The position numbers and the translations under genes were made by a program. A stretch of 64,000 nt of DNA, from assembly GCF_000473995.1 (NCBI RefSeq), contig NC_022571.1, forward strand, positions 4,061,416-4,125,415. The letters run 5' to 3'. The notes under the pieces were generated by a model. It was given only the letters and a program-made list of their open reading frames with translations, searched no databases and was not told the DNA's origin. Positions 41,953 through 51,101 of this stretch are shown here, one piece after another; positions within the stretch are counted from its first letter, which is position 1; each line of letters begins with the position of its first letter. This DNA is from Clostridium saccharobutylicum DSM 13864 (lineage in GTDB: Bacteria > Bacillota > Clostridia > Clostridiales > Clostridiaceae).

Positions 41953-43668
41953 TCATATCTTAAACTTGGATATTTGCTCATTTAATTTCTGAGAACTATT
42001 CTTTGATTTCGCCATTTCTTCAGCAACTCCATTTGATTTTTCAGTTATAGCAACTATCTTATCGGCAATATTATATGTTCCTTCTGCCCCTTCATTGGAA
42101 GCTGCAGCCACCTGCTCTATTGTATTTACTACATTCTGAAGCGAAGCTAAAAGTTCCTCCGAAGTAGAACTAAAATCTAAAACTAAATTACTTACAAATT
42201 CAGCATCTTTGCTATATTTATCTGCAACATTTATCATAGAATTATAATCATCCTGCACATCTGCAGACATAAAATTCAATAGTTCATGTGAACTAGATGA
42301 TAAATCATTTACTGATGATATTACTTTTTTAGTTACATTTTGTATTTCAATTATTGTATTTTCAGACTCTTCTGCAAGATTTTTTATTTGATCGGCAACA
42401 ACTGCAAAACTGCGCCCTGCTTCTCCAGCTCTTGCAGCTTCAATAGATGCATTTAATGCTAACAGATTTGTTTGACCCAAAACTCCTTTAATTGTTTCAG
42501 ATAATATATTAATTTCTTCAACCACCTTTGATTGTTTCATGGCAATTTTCAAGCTCTCATTTATTGTATTAAATATACCTAAACTTCTTTCTTGTGACTT
42601 TATAACACTATCTCTTGTGTCAATTGCTCTTTTATTTATCTCAGAAGCTTCCATTGCACCTTCTTCAGCTTTTTTAGCTATGGACTTAACAGCTCTTTCT
42701 ATTTCATTAGCCGTTGAATTCATTTCCTGTGCAGATGCTGCTGTTTCTTCCATACCCGCAGATAATTCTTCTGTTGTAGCAGCCACCTCTTCTATGTTTC
42801 CATTTAAATTATTTATATCTTCTGAAACATTAATTACTACTGTTTCTATGGAATTAGATTCATCTTTTACCTTTCCAATCAACTGCTTTAAAGAATTTTG
42901 CATCAATTGTATCGTATTTGCAATTTCACCAATCTCATCTTTTCTATTTATAAATTGTTCCGATTCATTAGTTGTGAAATCACCTTCAGCTACTTTTTTC
43001 AAATGATTTACACCTAATATAAGAGGATATGATATAGACTTTGAAATAATAAATGTAAGAATTGTCCCAATACCTATTGCAATCAAAAAGATTATTAAAA
43101 ATACCACTTTAGAAGTATCAAAATTTTTAGTATTCTGAATACTTAATTGCTCTGCCAAATTAGTATTATATATAGCAATTTCCTTTAACGCATCTTGAAA
43201 TTGTTTTTCATTGCTATCAACAGTTTTAAGTTCATCCATTGCAGCTTTTTGATCACCTTGAACTGCTAATTTAATAGCAGAATCTCTTACGCTTGTATAC
43301 TTTTCAAGGTTACTTTCAATAACCGGAATCCTATCTGTTTCATATTGATCATTAGCAACTTGCTTATATTTTTTCCAGTTTTCAGAAAAATTTTTTTGTC
43401 TTGTTTCAATATCCTTTACTGTCTCACTTTGTTTATTTTTATCTTCTGTATGCAATAATATATAATATAAATCTGCTTCTATAGCTCTAGCTTGATTTCT
43501 ATTGTCATTTAACCATTGAACACTCAATAAATTATCTTTGTATAATGCTGTAATATCTTTATTCGACTTTGAAATATAATAATATCCAACCCCACTCATT
43601 ATGCTTGTAAGAAACAACGATATAGCTGAGAATAATATTAATTTTGATTTTACTTTTAAGTTGTTCAC
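41953..43668 (-). CDS. Methyl-accepting chemotaxis protein, four-helix-bundle sensor
   Basis: A 571-residue receptor of a different class from the three at 23-30 kb. TM1 is [20 protein letters not shown]; a 4HB_MCP sensor of about 150 residues follows ([36 protein letters not shown]); TM2 is [20 protein letters not shown]; then HAMP and the signalling hairpin [39 protein letters not shown] choose GTG 43668 (VNNLKVKSK) because AGGGGTGA lies just upstream; an earlier ATG has no ribosome site and overlaps it. The ligand is unknown. Confidence 0.9.
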
Positions 43669-43869
43669 ATAATCACCCCTCGACATAATTATACACTATA
43701 TTCTTACATTCTCAATATGTACCAACAAAAAACATCTTATACGTCATCATATTTTCAATTACTATTAAGTAATTTAAAAACTTTCATAAAATTACTTAAA
43801 TTGTCAAAAACAACACTTTACTAATTAATAGTTTTTCATAATTATAAATAATGCAAATTTTTTATTATA

Positions 43870-43908
43870 AAATCAAATAAAAATGACCTCTGCTTATTAA
43901 CAGAGGCC
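43870..43908 (-). terminator. Terminator of the riboswitch-controlled gene
   Basis: GACCTCTG and CAGAGGCC arms around CTTATTAA, with a T-rich tail on the minus strand (CATTTTTATTTG). It lies about 200 bases after the stop at 44114. The rest of 43669-44113 shows no gene. Confidence 0.6.
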
Positions 43909-44113
43909 AATCCCATAAATTTGAATAAATTCAACTACATAAATTAACGCTGAATACTTCCCTATTATTATTTTTTTCTTTAATATTTCTTATTAATATA
44001 AAATACCCTTTTTATATTATAATTCTCATTCTAGCCACTTAAGTGTGACTTATTACTCTCAATTAATAAATTACCCTTACCTTGTATTACATTCTAAGTT
44101 ATTCTAAACACCC

Positions 44114-44491
44114 TTATTTAACCATAGCTGAAAGATTAAACATTTCACTAACATTATAATCAACAATTCCATACCTAGAACTCCAAGTGGATATCATATC
44201 ATCTTGCATTGTACAAGTGCATATAATATTACTCAACAACGAACTTTTGTTATTATCTACTTCATCATATAATTCTGGATTAAAAATAACTGCATTATTA
44301 TAATCTGTTTGTGATTTTGTCATGATTGAATTTACTTCATCCATACTAACATTGCCAAGCAACGAATCTACATTTGAAGTTCCTTCATCATTATTTTTCG
44401 CTACGGATACGTTTACCAAAGATGCTTTCGAAACCAAAGTAAACATCGATGACATCATAAATGATATCTTCCTTAAAAAACTTTTTTTCAT
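44114..44491 (-). CDS. Small putative secreted protein under a c-di-GMP riboswitch
   Basis: A 125-residue protein with a basic, hydrophobic N-terminus (MKKSFLRKISFMMSSMFTLV, possible cleavage after SVA near residue 31) and an acidic mature part (DEGTSNVDSLLGNVSMDEVN, FNPELYDEVDNN, CTCTMQDDMISTWSSRYGIV). A CTC pair of cysteines lies near residue 91. I know no domain for it. The main clue to function is the cyclic-di-GMP riboswitch in its leader, which places it with surface, adhesion or motility-to-biofilm genes. AAAGGTAGGG precedes ATG 44491. Confidence 0.7.
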   Translation of the reverse strand: MKKSFLRKISFMMSSMFTLVSKASLVNVSVAKNNDEGTSNVDSLLGNVSMDEVNSIMTKSQTDYNNAVIFNPELYDEVDNNKSSLLSNIICTCTMQDDMISTWSSRYGIVDYNVSEMFNLSAMVK

Positions 44492-44555
44492 ATGACCCTA
44501 CCTTTCATCGTGAAAAAGGGAAATAGGTCAATAAAAATGGACCAAAAAAATATTA

Positions 44556-44730
44556 ATCACAGTTCCATTCCTATGATCTCCCGTGGTAACCGGCTGCCAT
44601 CCACATAAGAAATATTTAAGAATAGTAAGCACATCAACTAGTCTATTTTTTCATATTTCTAAATAACTTTAGTGGTTCAGGCCCTTGGCTTTGCGTCTCA
44701 CAGTTTCCCATGATTTGCCTTTTTCACTTT
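44556..44730 (-). ncRNA. Cyclic-di-GMP-I (GEMM) riboswitch with terminator
   Basis: On the minus strand the conserved parts occur in the right order: AAAAAGGCAAATCATGGGAA, then GAGACGCAAAGCCAAGGGCC followed by TGAACC, and last GGATGGCAGCCGGTTACCAC. The peripheral stem between GGCCTGAACC and GGCAGCC is enlarged to about 75 bases. Directly after the aptamer, ATCATAG and CTGTGAT (44556-44577) form a seven-pair stem followed by TAATATTTTTTT, an intrinsic terminator, so control at transcription termination is likely. The gene start is 65 bases further. Whether ligand turns the gene on or off is not decided. Confidence 0.85.
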
Positions 44731-45191: not shown

Positions 45192-48100
45192 CTAATCAAA
45201 ATAGATATCCGAAAATTCCATATCAGTTATATCAACACAACTACTTGCATTCTCAACTTGAGTTTGTATATCTTCAGCTTCATCTTCATCTAACCTTTTA
45301 ACTGGGATTTCGATAATAAACTTACTACCTTTACCTAGCTCACTAGATACAGATATTTTTCCTCCATGAAGTTCAATAAAAGATTTCACAATAGACAGTC
45401 CTATTCCGCTTCCTTCATTTCTTCTTGTGAATGTATTGTCGATCTGATGGAACCTTTCAAAAATAATATCCATTTTTTCTTCTGGTATTCCTATTCCAGT
45501 ATCATCTACAGAAATTATAACCTTAGAGTTTTCATTTAAAACTTTCACAAATATATAACCATTTTTCGGTGTAAATTTTATAGCATTTGAAAGAAGATTA
45601 AGTAATGATTTTTCAATTTTATCAGAATCTACAGCTATAATCCGCTCTTCTTCATCTGTATCAAACAATACTGTTATTTCTTTTAATTCAGCATATTTTA
45701 TAACCGATGTTGTTATATTCTCTATTAAGTTAATAATATTTAAATTTTTAAGCTCTAATTTTTTCAATCTCGCATCAATTTTAGTTATATCAATAATATT
45801 ATTTACTAATCTTAATAATCGATAACAATTCTGCTTAATCGTCTTTATATGATTAAATAAGTTTGCATTATTTTCAGCCGAATTATTTTTAATATTAGCT
45901 TCTATTAATTGTATTCCACTTAATATAACGGCAATTGGTGTTCTAAGCTCATGGCTTATATTTGCAATAAAATTAGTCTTGTCTAAATTTGCCTTATTAG
46001 CTTCTGCCTTTGCTCTAATAAGTTCCACTTCAGTTTTTCCGTACTTTTGTATTTCGTCCTTAATGATAGCATTAACTTCCTCTATGATAGTATTGGTTTT
46101 ATCAATTTCATTTGTTTTGCTTATCATAATTGGTATATTTTTTATTTTATTATCAATGTTATTAGAACTTCCCTCTTCATTAGGTAAATTAGAAAGAAAT
46201 TTCTTTTTTAAAAGACTTACTTCTTCAACTGCTTTCTTTGCCATTTTAAGCTCATTTTCAACTACTTTTCTTTCAGATATATTCATATGAATACCAGACA
46301 TTTTAATCGGTTTATTACTTGTATTCCATTCAGTAACTCTTCCTGTTCCTAATATCCAAACCCACTCACCATTTTTATGTTTGATTCTAAATTCACATTC
46401 ATATACATCTAATTCTTTAGCAAAACATCTCTTTAAGCATTCCTTTGACTTCGTAATATCATCAGGATGCATAATTTCAAAAAACATATCTATATTTTGA
46501 AGTTTTAATTCATCTAAAGTATAACCTACCATAGAAACCCATTCTTCATTAATTTTAATTTCTCCAGTTTCTATATTCCATTCCCAAAGCCCCAAACCTG
46601 CATTAGTAACTGTAAATCTTAACTTATTTTCACTATCTCGAAGTTTATCATTCATGTTTTCCTCTAAAGTATTATAAAGAATAGCATTTTCAAGAGAAAT
46701 TGCTGCTTGAGTTGATAAAATATCAATGACCTTTACTCTATCAGGCTTAAAAGCTCCCTCAACTAAATTATTTTCAAGATATAATACTGCTTTTATTGTA
46801 TTTTTTATCTTAACTGCTGTTGAAAAGAATGATTTTGGCTTTTTATTAATAATATATGGATCCTCATCAAATAAAAATTTATCCGTTTTTTCTGGAAATA
46901 TAACATTTTCTCCTGTCCTTGCTGTAAATCTGATAACTGTTTTTGGTAATTCTTCAAATTCATCAAGTGGCTGAAGAGTCAATATTTCCTTTTTGTTGCG
47001 TACTGCATCTACATAAGCTTTAATAACTAGTGCATCATGTGATTTTAATATAAGAAATCCTCTTTGTGCTCCCATATTTTCTAAAATAACTGTCATAAGG
47101 CGACCAAGTAATCCTTCTAGATTTATTTCACTCGAAATTGCTTGCGAAGCCTTCATAATTGAAAATAAATCCATACCTTGAGTTGAATTTATATTATCAT
47201 CAGTTTCCTCCATTAAACTTGGATACCTATTTTTCATTTCATTTACTTTTGCTATTGCTCCCCAAAGTTCATATTTATTTTTAGCTTCAATAAGATATAC
47301 TTTCGCCGCATCTCTCTTGCATTCATCTAAATAAAACTTTCCTGCTAATTCATAAGCTAAAGCTTCATCATTTAAATATTCATTTTCCCTAGCTAACTTA
47401 ATTGATTTATCATAACATTGTCTAGCTTCATTATAATTGCCATTTACTTTACACAGTTCTGCTTGGACTAAATAAAACTTATGCATAAAATTCATTGGCG
47501 CAAGCTTTGCCCAAGTTTTCATAACTTCTTGATTTCTGCTTACTCTTGTTAAGTTAGCAATTTGTTCTTCTTTTGCTAATGTGAAATGTACAGCTAATCT
47601 TGAAAGTGAATCATAAAAATAATAAACTGCTATATCTATAGTTGCAGATGCTCCAGCTAAGTTTTCTTCTACCTTTTTTCCATATTGTATAGCGCCAAAA
47701 TAATTTCCAAATATGTAATCAAGTCTCATCTTTCCTAGGTATAGAAATACTAAACCTAACATATCACCAATATCTTCAAGTATCAAAATCATTTCATCTT
47801 CATCACAAAACTCTCCTGTAAGTTTAATTGGATCTTTTGATTTTCCTTGAATATTCTCAACAATCTGTCCAAAAACAAATACCCAGTTAACACTGAATCC
47901 TTGTTTTATTTTTTGTAACTTTATTATATTCTTCTTTATATCATCTTCAACTATGTTAAGTTCTTTACCAGAATAAAATGAATGTTTATTGTAATTCATT
48001 AAACAATAACCCGCATACTCAAAATTACCATTTTCTATTCCTGCAAGATATCCATCCATAAGAGGTTTGAGCGTATCTCTAAGACTTTCCTTCCACTCAT

Positions 48101-51100
48101 TTACTGATGAATTATTCACGTCTAAAACTACTACCTTAGATGGTTTCATATTAGGCTTTTCTACAATATGCGCATTTATTTTTCCTAATTTATAAGCAAG
48201 CTCTATGTATTCCTCAAGTTTATCCCCTAACTCTATATTGGTTATATATGAACAAAGAGCAAGTCCATAAAGTGAATATGCTCCAGGTGAAAATGGAGAA
48301 TCACCAAACTTTATTGAAAGTTCTACCATCTTACACACAGCTATATTCATGACCATTGGCGCTATTTTATATGCGGCAGATATACTTCCAAGTAAAATCT
48401 GCATTGCTCCAAGCATTACTTTATCTTTCATTTCTGGTAGCTTTACTAAATTTTCTGGCTTAATTTCTCTTACTATATTCCATACCTCTTCAAACACTTC
48501 ATCTACGTCTTCTTTGGTAGGATTAGCTTTAATATCTATTCCCATTAATTTAAGAACTGGTAAAGCAGTATCTAATGCTTCCTGTACATTTAATTGAGCT
48601 TGAGATGCTTCAATTTTAACTCTATAAACGTTAACCTTATCCATTAATGTTTTAGCATTTTCCAAAACTACTGCTGCAAATTTATCCATTTTATTATAGT
48701 TGCTTATAAGATAACTTGCTTCTGTAATTTCTGAGTATAATTGCAGAGTTATATCATAAAAATCCTGCCATCCATTGCTATTAGCTAATAACTTAATTCC
48801 TTCATTAAAATAAGTATATGCAGAATAATATGCAGAAGATTGTTTTGATGCTATACCTGCTTTTAAGTTTAACTCTGCTAATTTAACTTTTTCAAATTTA
48901 TCTGTTATTATTATGCTTCCTGCATTAAGCTGTCTCACTGTTTCAAATAATTGTTCAGACTTATTAACTTCCGCATAATTCTTTAAATAAAGCTGACCTA
49001 ACTGTAAATGTATCGAACATTTTTCATCATCAGATATTATAGAATATACTGCCTGCTGAACGCGGTCATGAACAAACTTAAATTTAATATCCGCCTTCAG
49101 TAGATCTGATTCTCTGTTATTATGTAAATCATAAATCAAACCAATTTTTACAGCTTCCTTTAATGAATTTAATATTGATTCACCATCTTTATCGTTTACT
49201 AAAACTAATGTTTGCAAATCAAACTCATTTCCCATACATGCTCCATACTTTAGATACTCAATAGCTGATGGTTTTAACATTTTAATTTTACTATCTAGAA
49301 GATCTATAACATTTTCTGTTATATTCATCTTTCTTATTTCTTCAGTATTGAAGCACCATTTCATTAAATTATACTCAAACCATAAGTGTTTAAAATCATA
49401 TAAAGATCTCAAAAACTGTCTTACAAAAAATGGATTACCTTGTGTTTTACTATATATGCAATCTGATAATTCTTCGATATCATTCAAATCCTGTTCAAGC
49501 CCTACCAAAGTATCTTGTAAAAGTAACTTAATATCTTTTCTCTCAATAACTTTTAAATCAATTGTATGAATTGTTATTCCATCTTGAATAATTTCATACA
49601 TCCATGACATTATTGGACGAAGTAGATTAGGATCATTATCCCTATATGCTCCTATTACTAATAAATATTTGTTAGATTTATCCATCATCATCATCTTTAT
49701 GAAATTAAGGCTAGCAGAATCTGCCCATTGTAAATCATCAATAAACATTACCAATGGATGTTCCTCTGTAGCTATTATTTTCATAAAATTTCCGAACACC
49801 AAATTAAATCTATTCTGAGTTTCAATTGCGCCTAATTGAGGTACTTCTGGCTGCTTTCCTATAATTAGCTCTAAAGTTGGAATAACATCTATTATCACTT
49901 GTCCATTGTTTCCAACACATTTTAAAATACGTTCTTTCCATTTCTTTAGCTCACTTGATGGTTCTACAAGTAACTGCTTAATAAATTTATCTAGCGATTG
50001 AATTATTGTGCTATAAGGTATGTCATTTTGGAACTGTTCAAATTTTCCAAAAAGGAAATATCCATTTTTTTGCTTAATGCTATCAGAAATTTCATTAACT
50101 AAAGCAGATTTTCCTACTCCTGGCGAACCTGCTATTAACAGTATTTCCATACTTCCTTCTCTAACTCTATCAAATGACTCTATTAACTCTTTAATTTCTT
50201 TATCACGTCCGTATAATTTCTGAGGTATGCAAAACTCTCCCGAAAAATCATATTTGCCCAATTCAAAATTCATACTTTCATTATTTTCTATTGCAATAAC
50301 ACACTTTTCTAAATCTTTCTTTAAACCTGAAGCTGACTTATAACGTTCTTCAGGATCTTTTGCAATTAATTTTAAAACAATATCAGAAACAACTTCTGGT
50401 ATATCAGAAATTAATGTTGTTATACTCTCAGGTTGTTTTGCTACATGACTATAAATAAGGCCCATAGTATCTTCTGATTTAAATGGTAGTCTTCCTGTTA
50501 ACATTTCATAAAACGTTATTCCTAAAGAATAGAAATCGCTTCTATAATCCATAGATCTATTTGTTCTTCCAGTTTGTTCTGGAGAAATATAATTTAGGGA
50601 GCCCTGAAAAATATTATTATTCTCATCTATATAACTCTCATTTTGTAAGCATTTAGCATTACTAAAATCAATAATTTTTATCTCTCCAGTCTCTCCATCA
50701 TATAATATATTTGAAGGATTAATAGCCCCGTGAACAATATTTTTTGCTTGGATCTTCTTTAAAGCATTACAAATTCCAATCGCAATTGATAAAAATTCTT
50801 TAATATTAACTTTATTAAATTTATCTATAGTTTCGCCACTAAAATATTCTTCAACAATTCCCAATGAATGATTAAATTTCACAATATCAATATACTTAAT
50901 AACATTATTACTATTAATTCTACTTCCTATTTCAAACTCTTTCTGAAACGATTTAATATCTTCACTATTAGGGCATTCTGCATTCATCATTTTTAAAACA
51001 ATAGGATATCCATCAGAAATTCTCTTTCCCTTATAAATCTTTGATCTTAATCCACTATATAATTCACCTAATATTTCATAATCTTTTAATTTTATATACA

Positions 51101-51101
51101 T
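45192..51101 (-). CDS. Giant kinase-like/AAA ATPase/GAF/PAS/histidine kinase (HstK-like)
   Basis: A 1969-residue cytoplasmic signalling protein. Residues 1-270 form a Ser/Thr-kinase fold: K37, the loop HGAINPSN at 124-131 and DFS at 145-147. The catalytic Asp of the usual HRD is Ala126, so this part may be a pseudokinase. An AAA-type ATPase follows with P-loop GSPGVGKS (325-332) and Walker B LVMFIDDLQWAD, then a long helical TPR-like region (about 700-1250), a GAF domain (about 1270-1440), a PAS domain (LWEWNIETGEIKINEEWVSM), and a histidine kinase with H-box NISHELRTP near 1715, N-box LLSNAIKFTP, and G-boxes DDTGIGIPEE and GSGIGLSIV. The layout matches cyanobacterial and clostridial HstK-type proteins. 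No response regulator is encoded nearby. Confidence 0.9.
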   Translation of the reverse strand: MYIKLKDYEILGELYSGLRSKIYKGKRISDGYPIVLKMMNAECPNSEDIKSFQKEFEIGSRINSNNVIKYIDIVKFNHSLGIVEEYFSGETIDKFNKVNIKEFLSIAIGICNALKKIQAKNIVHGAINPSNILYDGETGEIKIIDFSNAKCLQNESYIDENNNIFQGSLNYISPEQTGRTNRSMDYRSDFYSLGITFYEMLTGRLPFKSEDTMGLIYSHVAKQPESITTLISDIPEVVSDIVLKLIAKDPEERYKSASGLKKDLEKCVIAIENNESMNFELGKYDFSGEFCIPQKLYGRDKEIKELIESFDRVREGSMEILLIAGSPGVGKSALVNEISDSIKQKNGYFLFGKFEQFQNDIPYSTIIQSLDKFIKQLLVEPSSELKKWKERILKCVGNNGQVIIDVIPTLELIIGKQPEVPQLGAIETQNRFNLVFGNFMKIIATEEHPLVMFIDDLQWADSASLNFIKMMMMDKSNKYLLVIGAYRDNDPNLLRPIMSWMYEIIQDGITIHTIDLKVIERKDIKLLLQDTLVGLEQDLNDIEELSDCIYSKTQGNPFFVRQFLRSLYDFKHLWFEYNLMKWCFNTEEIRKMNITENVIDLLDSKIKMLKPSAIEYLKYGACMGNEFDLQTLVLVNDKDGESILNSLKEAVKIGLIYDLHNNRESDLLKADIKFKFVHDRVQQAVYSIISDDEKCSIHLQLGQLYLKNYAEVNKSEQLFETVRQLNAGSIIITDKFEKVKLAELNLKAGIASKQSSAYYSAYTYFNEGIKLLANSNGWQDFYDITLQLYSEITEASYLISNYNKMDKFAAVVLENAKTLMDKVNVYRVKIEASQAQLNVQEALDTALPVLKLMGIDIKANPTKEDVDEVFEEVWNIVREIKPENLVKLPEMKDKVMLGAMQILLGSISAAYKIAPMVMNIAVCKMVELSIKFGDSPFSPGAYSLYGLALCSYITNIELGDKLEEYIELAYKLGKINAHIVEKPNMKPSKVVVLDVNNSSVNEWKESLRDTLKPLMDGYLAGIENGNFEYAGYCLMNYNKHSFYSGKELNIVEDDIKKNIIKLQKIKQGFSVNWVFVFGQIVENIQGKSKDPIKLTGEFCDEDEMILILEDIGDMLGLVFLYLGKMRLDYIFGNYFGAIQYGKKVEENLAGASATIDIAVYYFYDSLSRLAVHFTLAKEEQIANLTRVSRNQEVMKTWAKLAPMNFMHKFYLVQAELCKVNGNYNEARQCYDKSIKLARENEYLNDEALAYELAGKFYLDECKRDAAKVYLIEAKNKYELWGAIAKVNEMKNRYPSLMEETDDNINSTQGMDLFSIMKASQAISSEINLEGLLGRLMTVILENMGAQRGFLILKSHDALVIKAYVDAVRNKKEILTLQPLDEFEELPKTVIRFTARTGENVIFPEKTDKFLFDEDPYIINKKPKSFFSTAVKIKNTIKAVLYLENNLVEGAFKPDRVKVIDILSTQAAISLENAILYNTLEENMNDKLRDSENKLRFTVTNAGLGLWEWNIETGEIKINEEWVSMVGYTLDELKLQNIDMFFEIMHPDDITKSKECLKRCFAKELDVYECEFRIKHKNGEWVWILGTGRVTEWNTSNKPIKMSGIHMNISERKVVENELKMAKKAVEEVSLLKKKFLSNLPNEEGSSNNIDNKIKNIPIMISKTNEIDKTNTIIEEVNAIIKDEIQKYGKTEVELIRAKAEANKANLDKTNFIANISHELRTPIAVILSGIQLIEANIKNNSAENNANLFNHIKTIKQNCYRLLRLVNNIIDITKIDARLKKLELKNLNIINLIENITTSVIKYAELKEITVLFDTDEEERIIAVDSDKIEKSLLNLLSNAIKFTPKNGYIFVKVLNENSKVIISVDDTGIGIPEEKMDIIFERFHQIDNTFTRRNEGSGIGLSIVKSFIELHGGKISVSSELGKGSKFIIEIPVKRLDEDEAEDIQTQVENASSCVDITDMEFSDIYFD

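What the first reader, a model, noticed from the sequence alone, without database searches (positions are those of the whole stretch)
44114..44730. c-di-GMP-I riboswitch with an enlarged stem controls an unknown small protein
The conserved GACGCAAAGCC and GGCAGCCGG-TTACC parts are clear, but one peripheral stem is expanded to about 75 bases. The terminator directly after the aptamer argues for c-di-GMP control of a 125-residue putative secreted protein without a known domain, a possible new effector of the motile/sessile switch.
Basis: partly seen in the sequence, partly recalled or inferred. Interest (0 to 1): 0.6.

Follow-up and report, generated by a model that had tools for sequence, protein, structure and literature searches.

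The report
c-di-GMP riboswitch before truncated surface-protein gene
A genuine switch RNA for the signal molecule c-di-GMP sits in front of a short gene that is most likely not a new effector but the broken-off beginning of a giant secreted protein which related bacteria still encode behind the same switch.

Summary
The riboswitch is real: RF01051 (c-di-GMP-I) matches window 44729..44582 on the minus strand at 60.5 bits, cut-off 35. The enlarged stem is also real. P3 is 96 nt, against 33-46 nt in 20 relatives with the same switch, and this aptamer span is the longest of 100 in the genus.

The scan finds no terminator directly after the aptamer. The platform instead looks like a Shine-Dalgarno (SD) switch: aptamer 5' strand GUGAAAAAGG is perfectly complementary to CCUUUUUCAC just before the SD, a feature of all seven clostridial members and of none of 96 other genus c-di-GMP-I RNAs.

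The "unknown 125-residue protein" is most likely a truncated remnant. In C. folliculivorans, C. pascui and many Bacillaceae the same switch precedes large secreted fibronectin-III repeat proteins. The window ORF aligns with their signal peptide and first FN3 strands, at protein (0 of 2,000 shuffles reach it) and DNA level (E 4e-5), then stops. Two sister genomes kept the switch while the gene decayed or vanished.

So it is a known RNA class on an eroded target. Ligand response and ON/OFF sign are untested.

The parts
44582..44729 (-). c-di-GMP-I riboswitch aptamer (RF01051)
   Evidence: cmscan 60.5 bits, E 2.3e-9; one of 4 in this genome
44718..44727 (-). Aptamer 5' strand GUGAAAAAGG: P1 5' half and complement of the anti-SD element
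   Evidence: sequence; duplex -14.0 kcal/mol with CCUUUUUCAC, 0 of 60 shuffles reach it
44583..44585 (-). P1 3' half CAC (pairs with GUG); CAC or CGC in 21 of 21 same-class switches
44605..44671 (-). P3 apical extension unique to this copy; imperfect hairpin 44660-44608; single copy in the genome
44556..44577 (-).
   Evidence: sequence, relatives, no terminator called here
44510..44519 (-). CCUUUUUCAC: can pair either with the SD region or with the aptamer 5' strand
44496..44506 (-). GAAAGGUAGGG, Shine-Dalgarno region of the ORF, conserved in the clostridial members
44114..44491 (-). 125-codon ORF: probable remnant of an FN3-repeat secreted protein (signal-peptide-like start, about 50 unmatched residues, first FN3 strands, stop)
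   Evidence: no FN3 relative of it elsewhere in the genome
44119..44206 (-). Part of the ORF homologous to the first FN3 domain (QDDMISTWSSRYGIVDYNVSEM...)
   Evidence: blastn 65% over 88 nt, E 4e-5, to C. folliculivorans; hmmsearch 12.6 bits for the stretch
43884..43909 (-). Terminator-like hairpin closing the riboswitch-ORF unit before the MCP gene

Best explanation
A class-I c-di-GMP riboswitch once controlled a giant secreted FN3-repeat protein here. The coding part has since been cut down to a 125-codon stub, while the switch and the SD stayed. The switch most likely works on translation. With c-di-GMP bound, helix P1 holds the aptamer 5' strand (GUGAAAAAGG), leaving CCUUUUUCAC free to pair with the SD (GAAAGG), so expression is OFF. 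Without ligand, the aptamer 5' strand takes CCUUUUUCAC and the SD is open, so expression is ON. Shown by computation: the aptamer, the complementarity and its restriction to this class, the homology of the ORF to the FN3 protein, and the lack of that protein elsewhere in this genome. Inferred: ligand binding, the direction of control, and loss of function of the stub. The P3 extension is most likely a tolerated insertion at the stem tip with no new function.
For: RF01051 match. The same switch is found in 20 relatives, 18 of them before FN3-type secreted ORFs; pfam fn3 E 6e-26 and 3e-31 in the two scanned. The ORF against a profile of their N-termini scores 15.3 bits, E 7.6e-7 for one comparison, best of 2,000 shuffles 10.2. 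DNA homology is collinear at the ORF start (74% over 43 nt, E 0.005) and end (65% over 88 nt, E 4e-5). The FN3 protein gives no match in this genome at E 0.001. Parallel decay: the Clostridium MAG_CA253 60-codon ORF is a DNA-level remnant (E 5e-12), and C. chromiireducens shows no trace of the gene. Duplex of 5' strand and anti-SD: -13.4 to -14.4 kcal/mol in 7 of 7 clostridial members, none of 96 other c-di-GMP-I RNAs of the genus at -13 or below. With P1 forced the SD is 0.12-0.29 unpaired in the six clostridial relatives; with the alternative helix 0.63-0.97. The genome has 17 GGDEF matches.
Against: About 50 residues in the middle of the ORF have no match in the family, and the matched protein stretch is short (37 residues). 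The frame from start to stop is open, so a small protein could still be made and used. In the window copy the folding contrast is weak (SD unpaired 0.61 with P1 forced, 0.82 with the alternative helix, 0.36 unconstrained), so the switch may be impaired. The predicted OFF sign is opposite to Bc2 of B. thuringiensis, an ON switch before an adhesin gene (PMC4933901). Energy models do not capture ligand binding or co-transcriptional folding.
Confidence: 0.65

Rival explanations
1. The truncated ORF has been kept as a small secreted protein with a role of its own under c-di-GMP control.
For: Intact start, SD and 125-codon frame; signal-peptide-like N-terminus; aptamer almost unchanged. In C. chromiireducens the same switch leads directly to a 43-residue membrane peptide that has relatives in other genus members.
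Against: No homologue of the whole ORF in 68 genus genomes or in genome contigs. Its matched part ends in mid FN3 domain. Sister genomes carry different leftovers, which is the pattern of decay.
Confidence: 0.17
2. The switch is an ON switch acting by anti-termination or anti-sequestration, as Bc2 does before the cap adhesin gene of B. thuringiensis (a rival on mechanism only; compatible with the remnant reading).
For: Precedent for c-di-GMP-I before an adhesin gene (PMC4933901). Bacilli in this set have a terminator-like hairpin and a competing stem after P1.
Against: Both P1 strands are used by the alternative structures: the 5' strand by the anti-SD helix and, in Bacilli, the 3' strand by the stem competing with the terminator-like hairpin, so P1 formation should switch off.
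Confidence: 0.3
3. The P3 extension is a functional addition (second sensor, protein site or processing site).
For: About 50 nt longer than in any relative, unique in the genus set, can fold as a hairpin.
Against: No Rfam hit inside it, single copy, folding not exceptional (z -1.72), no relative carries it.
Confidence: 0.07

Closest known systems
c-di-GMP-I riboswitch (RF01051, GEMM-I)
   Same: All conserved elements; score well over the gathering cut-off
   Different: P3 tip extended by about 50 nt; predicted translational platform that uses the aptamer 5' strand
Bc2 riboswitch upstream of cap/cbpA of Bacillus thuringiensis (PMC4933901, PMC7423583)
   Same: c-di-GMP-I before a large surface-protein gene
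   Different: Bc2 is a transcriptional ON switch; this one is predicted translational and OFF; the ancestral target is an FN3-repeat protein, not a collagen-binding MSCRAMM; the target here is truncated
FN3-repeat secreted proteins behind the same switch (C. folliculivorans, C. pascui, Bacillaceae, Paenibacillus, Cohnella)
   Same: Same riboswitch architecture, SD and signal-peptide start; homologous first FN3 strands
   Different: Complete ORFs of relatives are about 1,270-1,890 codons long; the window ORF has 125

Membership tests
c-di-GMP-I riboswitch (RF01051) | Covariance-model score above gathering cut-off over the full model | tested here: met
   60.5 vs 35 bits, model 1-87
c-di-GMP-I riboswitch (RF01051) | GACGCAAAGCC core, GAAA tetraloop on P2, GGCAGCC-GGUUACC 3' segment | tested here: met
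   alignment
c-di-GMP-I riboswitch (RF01051) | Binding of c-di-GMP | not testable with these tools
   needs in-line probing or calorimetry
Translational (SD-sequestering) riboswitch | Anti-SD strand with two mutually exclusive partners, one in the aptamer | tested here: met
   complementarity and class specificity
Translational (SD-sequestering) riboswitch | SD accessibility differs between aptamer-formed and alternative state | tested here: inconclusive
   clear in six clostridial relatives, weak in the window copy
Transcriptional terminator riboswitch | Intrinsic terminator between aptamer and start codon | tested here: not met
   none called; only one at 43909..43884 after the ORF. The scan is a simple consensus search
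FN3-repeat secreted protein of this switch class | Homology of the N-terminus and first FN3 strands | tested here: met
FN3-repeat secreted protein of this switch class | Complete FN3 domains and repeats | tested here: not met
   ORF stops after 125 codons inside the first domain; no Pfam hit

The most novel reading that the evidence does not exclude
Three Clostridium lineages lost or truncated the FN3 protein yet kept an almost unchanged c-di-GMP riboswitch with its SD switch. The riboswitch may have been re-used for small secreted or membrane peptides (125, 60 plus 47, and 43 residues), a case of riboswitch exaptation after target loss.
Probability: 0.2. Interest if true: 0.5.

Novelty: new member of a known kind. 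Interest (0 to 1): 0.33.

Why it matters
It replaces a claimed new c-di-GMP effector by a traceable history: a conserved riboswitch and surface-protein pair across Clostridia and Bacilli, eroded in this lineage. The pair itself, giant FN3-repeat secreted proteins behind a c-di-GMP-I switch, was not found described in the papers searched here (which lack most subscription journals) and is a testable link between c-di-GMP and the cell surface of Gram-positive bacteria.

Tried and rejected
Pfam and NCBIfam on the ORF: no family; a weak TrsH score (17.1 bits against a cut-off of 150) was ignored. Homologues of the whole ORF: none. The P3 extension as a genomic repeat: single copy. A second copy of the ORF or the FN3 protein in this genome: none. 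The 43-47-residue membrane peptide of G007/G056: absent from this genome, and no Rfam riboswitch lies in the loci of four of its other homologues. Literature on c-di-GMP riboswitches with FN3 targets: nothing relevant found.

Full report
1. Observation. cmscan of the 64 kb window against Rfam gives one hit above cut-off: c-di-GMP-I, 44729..44582 minus, 60.5 bits. The genome (5,107,814 bases, one contig) has four such riboswitches. Methyl-accepting chemotaxis genes lie near the other three, two at 2.73 Mb and one at 1.18 Mb. The genome also has 17 GGDEF matches, so c-di-GMP is likely made. From memory the chromosome length fits Clostridium saccharobutylicum; this was not verified.

2. The enlarged stem. 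Among 100 c-di-GMP-I hits in the genus the span here is 146 nt, median 86.5, next longest 94. Against 20 relatives with the same switch architecture, the part between GACGCAAAGC and GGUURCCRC is 96 nt here and 33-46 nt elsewhere. The extra sequence sits at the tip of P3, folds as an AT-rich imperfect hairpin without unusual stability (z -1.72) and is single copy. The tip of P3 is not a conserved part of the RF01051 alignment, so a tolerated insertion is the simplest reading.

3. The expression platform. No terminator is called between aptamer and start codon; the only one on this strand nearby is after the ORF. An order-wide pattern search that asked only for GTGAAAAAGGC and GACGCAAAG found six genomes. 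All six carry CCUUUUUCRC just upstream of the SD GAAAGGURGGG. That element complements the aptamer 5' strand GUGAAAAAGG over ten pairs. Duplex energies are -13.4 to -14.4 kcal/mol in the seven clostridial members with 0 of 60 shuffles as good, and none of 96 other c-di-GMP-I RNAs of the genus reaches -13. Forcing P1 closes the SD in the six clostridial relatives (unpaired 0.12-0.29); forcing the alternative helix opens it (0.63-0.97). For the window copy the contrast is weak (0.61 vs 0.82). The logic predicts OFF with c-di-GMP. An experimentally studied analogue before an adhesin gene, Bc2, is ON (PMC4933901), so the sign stays open. Several Bacilli show an additional terminator-like hairpin. 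The genome contigs pattern required TTTTTC, so the Bacillus set is biased toward this element; in that set the ten-pair match is present in some members only. The order-wide set is not biased in this way.

4. The protein. The ORF has no Pfam family and no whole-length homologue in 68 genus genomes or in genome contigs. In named relatives the same switch precedes large secreted proteins: signal peptide, then a segment such as LLPPSNLSxQLxTPSDVKLxWSSVYGATGYNVYxI and repeated FN3-like domains (pfam fn3 E 6e-26 and 3e-31 in the two scanned). A profile of their first 150 residues scores the window ORF at 15.3 bits (best of 2,000 shuffles 10.2), through SNIICTCTMQDDMISTWSSRYGIVDYNVSEM. DNA alignment agrees: ORF nt 286-373 with C. 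folliculivorans at 65% identity (E 4e-5) and nt 1-42 with L127 at 74% (E 0.005), in the same order. About 50 residues between have no match, and the frame stops a few bases beyond the homologous part. A search with the FN3 protein finds no match elsewhere in the genome. The best reading is a truncated remnant.

5. Parallel cases. Clostridium MAG_CA253 (G056, L139) has a 60-codon ORF homologous at DNA level to the same start (E 5e-12), followed by a 47-residue membrane peptide. In C. chromiireducens (G007, L155) no trace of the FN3 start is found, and its switch leads to a 43-residue version of that peptide. G008 has a large FN3 frame (2,219 codons) but no c-di-GMP-I aptamer is found in front of it. 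Switch and target have come apart more than once in this genus.

6. Verdict. A real member of a known riboswitch class with an unusual P3 insertion, on an eroded target gene. The new-effector reading is unlikely but not excluded.

Noticed in passing
L157 (G008:C75, around locus 1360-1600): A large FN3 protein frame (2,219 codons, 55% identity to the C. pascui protein) has a similar U-rich leader and SD but no c-di-GMP-I aptamer: the switch seems lost or never gained there.
   Followed up: partly
L055 and L056; also G004, G021, G022, G067: A 43-47-residue membrane peptide (VAITxxFxLALCKxSxRxDRNAQI) follows the orphaned switch in two genomes and has homologues in at least four others without a nearby Rfam riboswitch hit.
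   Followed up: partly
L185 1-80 (C. chromiireducens): A c-di-GMP-II riboswitch lies about 1.6 kb from the c-di-GMP-I switch.
   Followed up: no
window 45192-51101 (-) and 41953-43686 (-): Neighbours are a 1,969-residue protein that looks like a serine/threonine kinase joined to a histidine kinase, and a methyl-accepting chemotaxis protein with its own promoter-like site (43715-43688).
   Followed up: no
L006 6777-8099 and L007 473-2049: Transposase-like genes lie close to the other c-di-GMP-I riboswitches of this genome.
   Followed up: no
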